Assembly: GCA_009746045.1 (NCBI GenBank)
Contig: RPFO01000418.1
Location: forward strand, 2,401,334 to 2,465,333
Source of the DNA: Mesostigma viride
Taxonomy: Eukaryota > Streptophyta > Mesostigmatophyceae > Mesostigmatales > Mesostigmataceae
Reading direction: 5' to 3'
DNA length: 64,000 bases
Shown in pieces: positions 7,667 through 62,806 of this stretch. Position 1 is the first letter of the stretch. The number at the start of each line of letters is the position of its first letter. The notes below the pieces were generated by a model, which was not told the origin of the DNA, searched no databases, and saw nothing but the letters and a program-made list of their open reading frames with translations. The position numbers were made by a program, and so were the translations under genes.

Positions 7667-10600
7667 GCTTAAGCGCAGGGAGTTGAACCCGAGGTCGGAG
7701 CTGAGCTCCACTGGGACCAGGGTAAGCGCTTCTACTAAGTGCTTTTATTGCTAGCATCCCAGGATTTTATACTTGTAGTATTAATTATACACATATACTA
7801 TATATGTTATGGTTATAGTACCGGCGTTCCCAACCTTCTATATGCTGCGCTCGGCTGTGACCAGGGTAAGGGGTCCTTGCTTGTTTTACCAGTGTTCCAA
7901 GCTTGTATACACTTGCAGTAGCAGTTTGCGACCGACCTTGAATGCGGGCTGATGTAGTCGCTGTACTCTTCGCATCTGCGCACCCTGGCCTGCCCGCCTG
8001 CCTCCCTGCGTCCTGTTTGCCTGCCTGCCGACCTGTGTCCTTTTTGGTCGCCTGCCCGCCTGCCTGTCTCCATCCTGTGGGGTTGCCTGCCTGTCCCCCT
8101 GCCTGTTTCCCCGCAGCTGGGCCTGGCCAAGTCGTTTGACGAGATCCCAGGCATCCACCCGGCGCGGCTCATCCCCGGTAAGGGCACCGCCCATAACGAC
8201 GCGGGCGCTTTTCCCCTTCAAGGGAAACTATAGTAATTACTACACCGCCCATAATGACGCCATCGCTGGTTGGTTGTTGTACTACTGCTTGACTGCATCG
8301 GGGAGCCAAAGGGTTGGTTATTGTACTCCTCCTGCTTGACTGCATCGGGGAGCCAAAGGGGCGAACAAACATCCTTCACGCTAACTTCTTTTACGAATGC
8401 TACCCACAGAATAGTTTGCAAATGGTACTTACCGTGTAAGAATTTTTTTTTGTCTTGGTAGTGGTTGAGCATGTCGAGGATCCAACTTGTAGGTGCCGTT
8501 ATGAGTTGTTCGTACTCTCTCTTTGGTTGTCTCTTTGGTACTGAATGTGCAGCGCTTTATTATTACACTGGAGGTGCCAGGCTCCCATTGGTGCGCGGCT
8601 GGATGCCCCAAAAAGTCACCTCAAAATGCCCATCGATTCATGTGTGCGTTAAAGCCCGCAAATGATTTGTTTGTGAAAGGCGGTGCCCACCATGATACTT
8701 CTTGCAATAATCCCATTAGGACGTAGCCATCATTAGTTTACACTAGCACCTGTCATGCATGATACCTGCCCCTGGCTAACCCCTGCTGTCACCCCGTGGC
8801 CCATGCCCATCCCACACATGTGCGTGCCCAGAGCGCACCAACCGGCCCGACTTCACACACAATGTGGAGGACATCACGGGTCGCAAGTCCATGCGGGTAC
8901 GCATACAGACTCACATGCGCATGCTTGGTAGCCATCAAATGTTGAGGGCATGATCGATGCAAGTTAATTGGGGGTATGCGCACATGCACGCATGCGGGGG
9001 GCTGTAGCTAGCGCGAATGAGCACAGTGGCTAGCACGAATGGGCACAGTAGCAGTAGCTGCACGGATGGGCACAGTAGCAGTAGCTAGCACGAATAGGCA
9101 CAATAGCAGCAACTAGCACGAATGGGCACAGTAGCAGCAGCTAGCACGAATGGGCACAGTAGTAGCTAGCACGAATGGGCACAATAGCAGTAGCTAGCAC
9201 GAATGAGCACATGGAGCAGGCAGTGGCCACCCACCTGCCTGACACAACAACAAGCCCCGCCCCTGGAGCCACTTTACATCGCACCCCACCCGTCAGTGCA
9301 CAGCCACACGGGAGGGATCCGGTGCGGCTGCTGTCCCCTCTCTCTGTATGTGCCAGGCCATATCTCGCAGGTCATATCTCTCTATATATTTGCCAGGTCA
9401 TATCTCTCTATACATGTGGCAGGTCACCATAGAGTGCTGGCACCACACGGATGTGCCCTCGGCCCCCCGCCCCTGTCACACGCAACCTTATCGCAAGCCA
9501 ACCGCCTCTGCTGTCCGCTTGGGTGGTGGCCATGAGAGCTCTCAAAGGTCTTGCGTGACTCGCACCCGGTGGACTCGATTACGTAACGTGTGACGGGAGT
9601 GGCGAGTGGGTGGGTGTATTGGGGGGGGGGGGGGGGGGGCGGGGGCTGTGACCGGGTAGTGCTCTTACTGGTCTGGACATGCCCTGCATCTCCATCATTC
9701 ATCCGGCTGGCTCACCCTGCCACTGGATGACATCTCATCTGATGAATGACAATGTTTCTGCCTCAACTTTCAACCTTTCTAGCTTCTTGTCCGTGTGATG
9801 TTTCGCAAGGCTATGTACAACTTGCCCCATGCGACACACGATCAGGTGTCAGACCTAAACAATGCTGCCGCTGGTCTCGGTCGGCATTGGCATGTGTGTC
9901 CTTGGCCCCCCGCCCCCTCCCACACCCCCACTGACCCCTGCAGAAGTCTTCGTCGCGCCAGACCAACCCAGTGGAGCCCGTCTACATCCTCCCCTCTTAC
10001 AAGGACGAGCCGCCATACTACGAGACGCCCTTCCTGCGCGACACGTGCGTTCGTGCGCGCTGGCACCCGTCTATGATAGTTCGTTTTCTTCACGTCATTG
10101 GAATTACATCGCCGGCTGTTCTCTGGTCGCCATCTGTTTTGGCCTGATCGCTCCCTCGGTACATCCCTCTTCGCACCTACGTGGCATCTGTGCGCTTATG
10201 TATGGTTAAGTGCTCCTATATTTTTTTCCTTTTCTCTGTCTGCTCACGCTACTGTCCCTCTCCTGCCACTTGCTCCCCTACCCGCGTGTCTTGCTGGCGC
10301 CTCGGTTCCCCGCAGGCTGCAAATTGACGACATTGAGGGCACGCGCACGGTGGTCAAGTCTCCAAAGGTAGGCTAATCCCTGCAAATTGTGTGAAAAGCA
10401 AGCTACGTACTGAAAAGAAGCGAGCGATCGGAACGGACCCACCTAAGGAGCGTCGCCTTGCAAAAGCATCGGAGTGTGCCATGTCTAGCCAGGGTGTTTA
10501 TATTGTAGACGCCGGCTATTGAATTTTTTTTTCTCTAGTTCATCATATTCTCACAAACCAAACTCAAACGTCTTTTTATATTGTATACACCGGCTACTGA

Positions 10601-62000: not shown

Positions 62001-62806
62001 GCCGCACTCAACGTCATACGGTGGCGTACCTCCGTACCCAGCCAAGGTTCATGGATCAAATGCTGCCGTGGTTAGTCGCCGTCTCAGAATCACATGATGG
62101 CTTCACTCTCCCAGCTATGCCGTATGCCACCCACATCCTGCCCCTACACCAACCATACACCAACCATACATCAACCATACACCAACCATACACCAACCAT
62201 ACACCAACCATACACCAACCATACACCAACCATACACCAACCATACACCAACCATACACCAACCATACACCAACCATACACCAACCATACACCAACCATA
62301 CATCAACCAACGATACATGAACCCCACACCAATCTGAGACCACCCACGCACCACCAACAAACCACCCCTCGACAGCCCACCTTGGACCGCCCCATGCGGT
62401 TGGCCACGAAGCAACACCCCCCTACGGGTTGTGTTGTATTGTACCCCCAACATACAACCGACAAACAACGGTTCAACAGCCCACCTTGGACCGCCCCATC
62501 CGGTTGGCCACGAGGCGCGAGCGGCTCAGCCCCGACGCGCCCGACCGACCCACGGGCGAACCGCCCTTGCTGCCCCCTTCCTTGCACCCTAGGGACGGTG
62601 ACCCGGGCAACGATGAGGGCGAACCGGGTCCAAAGGAGGGCGAGCCTGGGCCGGTAGAGGAGGAGGGGGACGACGCAGTGGCGAGGCTGGGTCGGCTGCG
62701 CGCGGCGAGAGATGCGGCGGCAAGGGACGCGGCGGCTTGTTCTTCGATGGTGACTGGCTTGCCATCCAGCCACTGGAGTGTGGGCAGGTGGGCCAGTACG
62801 GCCGCG
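50011..62806 (-). CDS. LRR-cap and FAM194-like domain protein, probable ciliary protein (5' incomplete)
   Basis: Phase-compatible exons, minus strand: 62806-62485, 57426-57371, 56385-56138, 55325-54963, 53936-53859, about 53393-53232, 52486-52340, 51383-50715, 50186-50011 (stop). The first carries [20 protein letters not shown], the usual cap after leucine-rich repeats, then a Ser/Pro/Gly-rich stretch. Later exons carry [23 protein letters not shown] then [29 protein letters not shown] and [19 protein letters not shown]. Their order and style fit the FAM194 domain of ERICH6-like proteins, judged from memory. The 51.4-kb exon ends in a Ser/Gly-rich tail. The second exon, the 5' edge of the sixth and the last exon are least certain. 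A ciliary role is inference from the phylogenetic pattern of FAM194 proteins. Upstream LRR exons must lie beyond 62.8 kb. Confidence 0.65.
51832..52115. repeat. 48-bp tandem array in an intron of the LRR/FAM194-like gene
   Basis: Six copies of a unit with ATGGAAAGGGAAGATAATGG and CCCTATTCGGAAGGGAGAAA. Confidence 0.95.
52264..52345 (-). repeat. 26-bp tandem array of an exon end and its donor
   Basis: On the minus strand the exon ends GATATGAAGCTGGCAG|GTGGGT at 52340. Three further 26-bp copies follow, diverging to CCAGTTGGG, GCACGTGGGT and GCAGTTGGGT. The strict AG|GT donor is intact only in the first. Confidence 0.9.
54045..54225. repeat. G-rich GGGGCAGGGGAAAGG array
   Basis: About 20 imperfect units of 7-14 bp, strongly G-rich on the plus strand. 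A separate array with GAAGTGATGAAACCGAGAAG (about 31 bp, seven copies) lies at 54505-54705. Confidence 0.95.
55725..55950. repeat. 55-bp tandem array
   Basis: Four copies of a unit with ATATTGGATAGACAACCACG, TGACGCAGCC and CATGCCTATTCATTCATCC, in the LRR/FAM194-like gene. Confidence 0.95.
56935..57295. repeat. 31-bp tandem array
   Basis: About 12 copies of GTGATAAATGGGGTAATAAG plus GGGGCCATCAT. The left copies have AAAGGGCGTAAGAAG. Confidence 0.95.
57730..57935. repeat. 15-bp tandem array
   Basis: About 13 copies of GGTAGTAATGGTATA. Confidence 0.95.
58368..58522. repeat. Poly-G and (GA)n microsatellite
   Basis: A G run of about 18 bp followed by more than 60 GA units. Confidence 0.97.
58757..61797. 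repeat. 60-bp satellite array, about 50 copies, in an intron of the LRR/FAM194-like gene
   Basis: The unit contains GACGTTAGGTCACAGCGAAC, a CGCACACACACC stretch of variable CA length, and AATCCACAAGGCAAACAACA plus TTTCGGG. Variation is limited to the number of CA steps, CGCACA/CGCGCA and CCAATC/CTAATC, so the array is young or homogenised. Long ORFs in it are artefacts. Confidence 0.97.
61872..61955. repeat. 27-bp triplication
   Basis: Three copies of GAACGAATATGAACGACAAG plus GTGTGAG. Confidence 0.9.
62148..62318. repeat. 11-bp (ACCAACCATAC)n array
   Basis: About 15 units, with ATCAACC variants at both ends. Confidence 0.95.

What the first reader, a model, noticed from the sequence alone, without database searches (positions are those of the whole stretch)
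7722..62485. Introns seeded and expanded by tandem copies of their own splice junctions
In all three intron-rich genes, about half of the introns I could define contain extra copies of the adjacent junction: the last 10-30 exon bases plus the 5' splice site, and sometimes the 3' splice site plus the first exon bases. I found this by eye at 7.8, 15.2, 15.4-16.0, 16.2, 23.7, 28.3, 31.6, 35.6, 36.9, 38.7, 41.0, 42.5-42.9, 50.5, 52.3, 55.6-56.0, 56.48 and 62.4 kb. Copies range from near-perfect tandem arrays to decayed remnants, with unrelated sequences at each site. This suggests that repeated duplication across exon-intron borders is a main source of intron growth here. I know of no described genome-wide system of this kind.
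Basis: partly seen in the sequence, partly recalled or inferred. Interest (0 to 1): 0.9.

Follow-up and report, generated by a model that had tools for sequence, protein, structure and literature searches.

The report
Tandem duplication fills green-alga introns
Introns of this green alga are full of short local tandem duplications, some of which run across the start of the intron and leave copies of the exon's end inside it; the copies are real, but the border is not a hot spot, and what stands out is that such duplications are common at the start of introns and rare at their end.

Summary
In 31 hand-curated window introns, 17 donors have a copy of exon end plus 5' splice site inside the intron (score >=14), and each of the 17 listed places holds a copy. 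It recurs elsewhere in this 440-Mb green-algal genome: 22 of 94 predicted introns outside the window and 5 of 22 dynein introns with borders supported by intron-less paralogs (0.06 expected). Own introns far exceed other introns (29 versus 1.4 of 116).

Stretches inside the same introns are duplicated locally about as often (210/982 versus 37/130 donors; p 0.07, 0.56, 0.39 at three thresholds), so the junction is not a preferred source. Copies that include exon stay recognisable longer because one side hardly decays (82% versus 64% identity over 8 of 9 usable copies). Best explanation: general short tandem duplication in introns, tolerated across the 5' splice site and purged across the 3' splice site (8/130 acceptors). 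The process is of a known kind; the polarity is the new part. No RNA-seq: donor use is inferred.

The parts
7667..17756 (+). Gene 1, ten exons as modelled, EF-hand protein; host of 9 curated introns
   Evidence: Exons join in phase into one protein without internal stop; EF-hand part matches EFCAB6 and calmodulins
22356..44454 (-). Gene 2, coiled-coil-like product, 19 exons in my curated list; host of 18 curated introns
   Evidence: Gene finder and reading frame only; some exons weak
50715..62806 (-). Gene 3, five exons in my curated list; the 6.1-kb intron 56386-62484 probably hides unpredicted exons
   Evidence: Gene finder only
7844..7877 (+). Copy of donor junction 7721|7722
   Evidence: 27/34, score 20, 0 of 100 null draws
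8571..8620 (+). Decayed copy of donor junction 8177|8178
   Evidence: 34/50, score 16, 0 of 100
8938..8984 (+). Decayed copy of donor junction 8896|8897
   Evidence: 34/48, score 18, 0 of 100
15170..15208 (+). Copy of donor junction 14534|14535
   Evidence: 33/42, score 21, 0 of 100
15411..16015 (+). 59-nt tandem array across the acceptor 16002|16003
   Evidence: TRF 10.2 copies; best copy 15814-15841, 26/28, score 24
16180..16218 (+). Copy of donor junction 16110|16111
   Evidence: 33/39, score 27, 0 of 100
23731..23759 (-). Copy of the donor junction of exon 23913-24041
   Evidence: 23/29, score 16, 0 of 100
27799..27835 (-). Copy of an acceptor junction (intron 27670-28437)
   Evidence: 28/38, score 15, 0 of 100
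28311..28339 (-). Copy of the donor junction of exon 28438-28504
   Evidence: 22/29, score 15, 0 of 100
29153..29179 (-). Copy of the donor junction of exon 29213-29284, part of a short-period array
   Evidence: 24/27, score 21, 0 of 100; TRF array 29000-29227
31606..31627 (-). Copy of the donor junction of exon 31640-31717
   Evidence: 20/22, score 18, 0 of 100
32235..32261 (-). Copy of an acceptor junction (intron 32103-32942)
   Evidence: 22/28, score 15, 0 of 100
35662..35681 (-). Copy of the donor junction of exon 35734-35863
   Evidence: 18/20, score 16, 0 of 100
36885..36903 (-). Copy of the donor junction of exon 36952-37068; 16 exon bases identical, spacer unrelated
   Evidence: 18/19, score 17, 0 of 100; flanks
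38703..38742 (-). Copy of the donor junction of exon 38806-38871
   Evidence: 33/42, score 22, 0 of 100
41037..41073 (-). Copy of the donor junction of exon 41131-41220; a third, decayed copy further in was seen by eye
   Evidence: 36/37, score 35, 0 of 100; third copy read
42460..42695 (-). Tandem array with 38-nt and 29-nt units across the donor of exon 42670-42738
   Evidence: Best copy 42540-42575, 36/36, score 36; TRF arrays 42460-42608 and 42580-42695
42964..42990 (-). Copy of the acceptor junction of exon 42670-42738
   Evidence: 22/27, score 17, 0 of 100
50587..50628 (-). Copy of the donor junction of exon 50715-51383
   Evidence: 33/43, score 22; maximum of 200 null draws 13
52276..52306 (-). 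Copy of the donor junction of exon 52340-52486, in a 26-nt array
   Evidence: 27/31, score 23, 0 of 100; TRF 52253-52355
55690..55712 (-). Weak copy of the donor junction of exon 56138-56385
   Evidence: 19/23, score 15, 3 of 100 null draws
56472..56495 (-). Copy of the acceptor junction of exon 56138-56385
   Evidence: 21/24, score 18, 0 of 100
62369..62412 (-). Copy of the donor junction of exon 62485-62806
   Evidence: 41/44, score 38, 0 of 100

Best explanation
Introns of this green alga accumulate short local tandem duplications (spacings of a few tens to a few hundred nt) along their whole length. A unit that spans the exon-intron border turns exon-e|intron-i into e|i-e-i: the upstream donor is kept, the protein is unchanged, the intron grows by one unit, and a copy of the exon end plus 5' splice site is left inside it. 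That copy then decays. Units that span the 3' splice site are mostly removed, because the new upstream acceptor competes and because the last tens of intron bases are constrained. Shown: the copies, their direct orientation, similar frequency in the intron interior, depletion at acceptors, about two-fold more divergence on the intron side in 8 of 9 usable copies. Inferred: use of the upstream donor, selection as cause of the polarity, slippage or unequal repair as the mutational step.
For: Own-intron copies 29/116 versus 1.4 permuted. Donors 37/130, interior anchors 210/982, mirrored interior 221/982, acceptors 8/130 at score 14. Inverted donor copies 0/116 at score 16, 3 at 14, against 23 and 29 direct ones. 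Exon side 146/178 identical, intron side 332/518 in 8 copies; simulated visibility gain 1.64-1.68. 8 of 29 donor copies have homology filling at least 85% of the spacing. Dynein introns 5/22 donors, 2/22 acceptors. One paralog in block A has an 88-nt donor-spanning unit that the other lacks. GT kept in 12 of 23 exon-only copies, so no sign of protection.
Against: Most donor copies (21 of 29) do not show full-unit homology; at 36.95 kb, 41.1 kb and A-24278 near-identical blocks have spacers that do not align, which plain tandem duplication with decay does not predict. A-25479 shows more divergence on the exon side (35/45) than on the intron side (79/82). At score 14 donors are slightly above the interior (p=0.073 over all blocks, 0.046 in the window, 0.071 in block D). 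The donor/acceptor difference weakens at score 18 outside the window (10 versus 5 of 94, p=0.28). No transcript data.
Confidence: 0.75

Rival explanations
1. One reading: exon-intron junctions are preferentially copied and are a main source of intron birth and growth.
For: Donor peak in the ungapped profile, 0.19-0.20 over 0.10-0.16 inside introns; window donors above interior at score 14, p=0.046; blocks copied without their spacers at 36.95 and 41.1 kb.
Against: No donor excess at scores 16 and 18; the visibility effect alone predicts more than is seen; acceptors depleted; no excess of downstream-exon-start copies beyond background.
Confidence: 0.1
2. A part of the copies come from insertions at double-strand breaks: staggered ends give direct repeats of the exon end around filler DNA, as proposed for gained introns in Daphnia.
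For: 18 of 19 identical bases with an unrelated 48-nt spacer at 36.95 kb; 26/28 exon-side identity with poor intron-side homology at A-24278.
Against: 8 of 29 copies are full tandem units; in 8 copies the spacer side is homologous at 64%; most copies lie near the 5' end of the intron and do not flank it. I did not test the origin of the spacers.
Confidence: 0.08
3. The copies are functional: alternative or decoy donors kept by selection.
For: 19 of 29 copies keep GT, though the alignment rule (at least 3 intron bases) favours this.
Against: With exon-only queries GT is kept in 12 of 23 at 82% identity, no more than neutral decay gives; using an intact GT would keep the frame without a stop in only 2 of 19.
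Confidence: 0.04
4. Artefact of wrong exon borders, chance similarity or assembly.
For: Borders come from a self-trained predictor without RNA; 93 of 209 predicted introns failed my filters.
Against: Dynein introns with paralog-supported borders give 5/22 versus 0.06; EF-hand homology crosses two window introns without a gap; permutations exclude chance; copies are diverged, which assembly duplication would not give (inference).
Confidence: 0.02

Closest known systems
[quoted passage not shown] potato RdRp case PMC4974935)
   Same: Tandem duplication touching exon sequence and splice sites; in the potato case the unit crosses an intron-exon boundary (abstract and passages).
   Different: There a new intron is born; here existing introns lengthen, and the downstream-exon-start copies that the Rogers layout predicts are at or near background.
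Internal tandem repeats at exon-intron boundaries of human paralogs (PMC2812944)
   Same: Minisatellite-like expansion at exon-intron borders changes intron structure (abstract and passages).
   Different: Human cases give novel introns and alternative splicing in recent paralogs; here the copies are spread over many genes, mostly decayed, and biased to the donor side.
Tandem repeats in introns of Chlamydomonas reinhardtii and Volvox carteri (PMC3887541)
   Same: In those green algae introns have the highest repeat density and repeats are more frequent near intron-exon junctions (abstract and passages).
   Different: That study reports a U-shape with more repeats toward both intron ends and does not, in the passages read, ask whether units include exon; here junction-spanning units are frequent at donors and rare at acceptors.
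Long introns of core-Reinhardtinia algae (PMC8226300)
   Same: Related algae with conspicuously long, weakly constrained introns (passages).
   Different: In the passages read the cause of the length is left open; local tandem duplication would be one.

Membership tests
Local tandem (minisatellite-like) duplication | Copies direct, close by, unrelated between loci | tested here: met
   Direct 23 versus inverted 0 of 116 at score 16; median spacing 103 nt; other introns match in 1.4 of 116
Local tandem (minisatellite-like) duplication | Homology spans the whole repeat unit | tested here: inconclusive
   8 of 29 donor copies reach 85% of the spacing; others are decayed or lack spacer homology
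Rogers-type intron gain by tandem duplication of an AGGT exon segment | Intron begins with a copy of the downstream exon start | tested here: not met
   3/116 versus 1.2 permuted (maximum 3) at score 14; 1/116 versus 0.3 at 16
Rogers-type intron gain by tandem duplication of an AGGT exon segment | Intron absent in relatives | not testable with these tools
   The genome has no relatives here
Introner elements | One sequence family shared by many introns | tested here: not met
   For the junction copies only: own intron 29/116, other introns 1.4/116; introns were not searched for shared families genome-wide
Intron gain by double-strand break repair | Short direct repeats at both ends of the intron | tested here: not met
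   Donor copies lie mostly in the first 15% of the intron, not at its 3' end (positions listed); repeats shorter than the score limit were not tested
Chlamydomonas-related green alga (host) | Green-type plastid rbcL and Chlamydomonas-like dynein | tested here: met
   rbcL best hit 1gk8 at 1053 bits; dynein best hit 8glv_Fm, 639 versus 539 bits for the next; that both entries are Chlamydomonas is recalled

The most novel reading that the evidence does not exclude
Introns of chlamydomonad green algae grow by a polar ratchet: local tandem duplication is accepted everywhere up to and across the 5' splice site, where the upstream donor wins, and rejected across the 3' splice site. Introns therefore lengthen from the donor side without changing the protein, and the exon-end copies are dated fossils of each step. 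This would supply a mutational cause for the long introns of the lineage and a genome-wide readout of the rule by which identical splice sites are chosen.
Probability: 0.3. Interest if true: 0.6.

Novelty: new variant of a known kind. Interest (0 to 1): 0.42.

Why it matters
If the polarity holds genome-wide, donor-spanning duplications are natural experiments in competition between near-identical 5' splice sites: 19 of 29 copies keep GT, and in 17 of these use of the copy would shift the frame or meet a stop. The exon partner gives each event a clock. It would also offer a mutational explanation for long introns in chlamydomonad algae, whose cause is left open in the passages of PMC8226300 that I read. 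As a claim of junction-seeded introns it should not be taken up.

Tried and rejected
Junction-specific copying: set aside after comparison with interior anchors. Downstream-exon-start copies (Rogers layout): at or near background. Exon-interior copies in the intron: 1/80 versus 1.1 permuted at score 14. Inverted copies: 0/116 donors at score 16, 3 at 14, 7 at 12. Functional decoy donors: no sign of GT protection. TGTAA as a lineage marker: 9 of 27 gene ends versus 10 on the opposite strand, no signal. The aligned lengths printed were spoiled by a self-overlap in my script and are not used; one search replaces them (the printed sequences are sound). The paralogous gene pair in block A shares little alignable intron beyond the exon flanks, so most duplications could not be polarised. 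Eukaryotic relatives could not be compared: the genome has no relatives here. 18S placement was tried once and not repeated.

Literature: eight searches. One search, aimed at duplicated splice sites and intron growth, returned one unrelated paper. No listing showed a paper on a donor/acceptor difference of junction-spanning duplications; most subscription papers are not held. Hellsten 2011 and Gao and Lynch 2009 are not held; I know them through PMC3443670 and PMC4974935. Papers were seen as passages (PMC3443670, PMC8226300) or abstract plus passages (PMC4974935, PMC2812944, PMC3887541), none in full.
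Full report
WHAT THE WINDOW IS. The window is G000:C1535:2401334-2465333 of a 440-Mb, 2243-contig genome. The rbcL in this assembly has 1gk8 as best PDB hit (1053 bits), and an intron-less dynein segment is closest to 8glv_Fm (639 bits, next 539); I recall both as Chlamydomonas entries. I take the organism for a green alga related to Chlamydomonas; the genus is unknown. 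The window is very rich in tandem repeats: 86 TRF rows, 26% cover, against 15% and 10% in two 100-kb blocks and 18% in a 50-kb block.

GENE MODELS. No RNA data were at hand. I seeded a small gene-finding HMM with exons picked by eye and self-trained it on 264 kb: window W, block A (C1535:500001-600000) and block B (C1:1-100000), the latter two with 2371 and 5000 N. It gave 252 exons and 209 introns. Fixed filters (both flanking exons above log-odds 4, intron at least 100 nt, exons less than half tandem repeat) kept 116 introns, W 36, A 34, B 46; 93 were dropped. Block D (C2022:3000001-3050000) was then run with unchanged settings and gave 14. Gene 1 joins in phase into one protein whose EF-hand part aligns to EFCAB6 and calmodulins; in the best-scoring EFCAB6 repeat it crosses the junctions of introns 14535-16002 and 16111-17073 without a gap.

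THE OBSERVATION. The last 40 exon bases plus 12 intron bases were aligned to the first 800 bases of the same intron, with at least 6 exon and 3 intron bases required (match 1, mismatch -1, gap -2). At score 14 or more 29 of 116 introns have a copy, against 1.4 on average (maximum 5) in 40 permutations with other introns; at 16, 23 against 0.3. In a hand-curated set of 31 window introns (partly different exons, first 1000 bases) 17 donors and 5 acceptors reach 14 and 19 introns have either. Each of the 17 listed places holds a copy.

INDEPENDENT BORDERS. Dynein AAA_6 segments occur intron-less and intron-rich in this genome. I fetched 12 spliced and 6 intron-less ones out of the 44 matches. Of 25 predicted introns, 22 had junctions supported by alignment to an intron-less paralog (19 ungapped, 3 beside a small gap) and 3 did not and were dropped. 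Five of 22 donors carry a copy (0.06 on average, maximum 1, in 100 permutations), one of them with only 8 exon bases, and two of 22 acceptors.

NOT SPECIFIC TO JUNCTIONS. Over 130 introns: donors 37/130, interior anchors every 100 nt 210/982 at score 14 (p=0.073); 28/130 and 188/982 at 16 (p=0.56); 19/130 and 177/982 at 18 (p=0.39). Donors are ahead at score 14 in the window (15/36 versus 74/294, p=0.046) and nearly so in block D (8/14 versus 39/126, p=0.071), not at higher scores. The ungapped profile peaks at the donor, 0.19-0.20, over 0.10-0.16 in the intron and about 0.02 in exons. A visibility effect predicts such a peak: with equal duplication rates, simulated exon-anchored copies were detected 1.64-1.68 times as often (uniform ages, one indel rate and one unit-length distribution assumed). 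The effect is seen directly: of 29 donor copies 9 allow the test (intron-side homology of 30 nt or more, spacing above 52 nt); in 8 the exon side sums to 146/178 identical and the intron side to 332/518; the ninth, A-25479, shows the reverse, and with it the sums are 181/223 and 411/600.

POLARITY. Mirror-image acceptors have copies in 8/130 introns, against 221/982 mirrored interior anchors (p=2.6e-6) and 37/130 donors (p=2.3e-6); outside the window 5/94 against 22/94 donors (p=0.00064). At score 18 the donor-acceptor difference weakens (19 versus 6 of 130, p=0.01; outside the window 10 versus 5 of 94, p=0.28). Anchors within one intron are not independent, so p-values against the interior are optimistic; donor versus acceptor is one count per intron. 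Acceptor copies do occur: the 59-nt array at 15.4-16.0 kb, copies near 27.8, 32.2, 42.97 and 56.48 kb, and one gene of a paralogous pair in block A.

WHY POLAR. After a donor-spanning duplication the upstream donor still gives the old mRNA; after an acceptor-spanning one the new AG comes first. This rests on general splicing knowledge. Two results fit it. In the paralogous pair, alignments reach 7-118 nt upstream of 8 acceptors but 2-41 nt past 6 donors, two more stopping inside the exon, so the end of the intron seems more constrained; the exon limits of the second gene are less sure. And 19 of 29 donor copies keep GT, yet in only 2 would its use keep the frame without a stop, so the upstream site must be favoured or the products destroyed. 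Copies are not visibly protected: with exon-only queries GT is kept in 12 of 23 at 82% identity.

MECHANISM. Copies are direct: at score 16, 23 direct and 0 inverted of 116. Median spacing is 103 nt at donors and 73 nt inside introns. Local direct repeats cover 16% of tested intron bases against 1.9% in a Markov control, a lower bound for their share in intron length and no proof that they are its main source. In 8 of 29 donor copies homology fills at least 85% of the spacing; the other 21 are decayed or, as at 36.95 kb, 41.1 kb and A-24278, have near-identical blocks with spacers that do not align, so some events may be insertions with direct repeats, or were overwritten later. One paralog in block A carries an 88-nt donor-spanning unit, 79/82 identical on the intron side, which the other lacks: a direct view of one growth step.

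WHAT IS KNOWN. Tandem genomic duplication is a recognised route of intron gain (PMC3443670, passages), with a potato case whose unit crosses an intron-exon boundary (PMC4974935, abstract and passages). Internal tandem repeats at exon-intron boundaries reshape human paralogs (PMC2812944, abstract and passages). In C. reinhardtii and V. carteri introns have the highest tandem-repeat density and repeats are more frequent toward both intron ends (PMC3887541, abstract and passages); that two-ended pattern is not the polarity described here and does not speak for it. Core-Reinhardtinia introns are conspicuously long with the cause left open (PMC8226300, passages). The listings of eight searches showed nothing on a donor/acceptor difference of junction-spanning duplications.

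VERDICT. The copies are real and recur across the sampled genome; they are an eye-catching part of general local tandem duplication in these introns. Junction-seeded introns are not supported. The donor/acceptor polarity and the exon-held clock are the parts worth following.

Noticed in passing
C2022:737504, C458:134894, C1624:1125493, C1909:46412: Several dynein heavy-chain segments lie in single open frames of 1,647 to 2,441 codons beside intron-rich paralogs: intron-poor, possibly retrocopied, genes.
   Followed up: partly
C602, C900, C996, C879: Full-length rbcL occurs once or twice per small contig (C602 and C900 in both orientations), which fits a plastid inverted repeat split over contigs; matches with stop codons lie in C879 and C996.
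   Followed up: no
window 45240-46110, minus strand: Open frame that I recognise from memory as an SmB-like spliceosomal protein with a proline-rich tail; no search was run on it.
   Followed up: no
window about 1235-1780 and 13660-14160: By eye, two diverged copies of one sequence, the second inside intron 13335-14341 of gene 1, perhaps remains of a mobile element; not tested.
   Followed up: no
L007 block, C1535:552811-552858 region (block A 52811-52858, minus): A whole predicted 48-nt exon is copied 112 nt into its own intron (37/45 identical) with the copy's GT lost; the source exon itself is only predicted.
   Followed up: partly
C1535:518018-528252 and 551628-561266 (block A): Paralogous genes with 80-93% similar exon blocks but almost no alignable intron interior: fast intron turnover; one gene carries a young acceptor-spanning copy.
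   Followed up: partly
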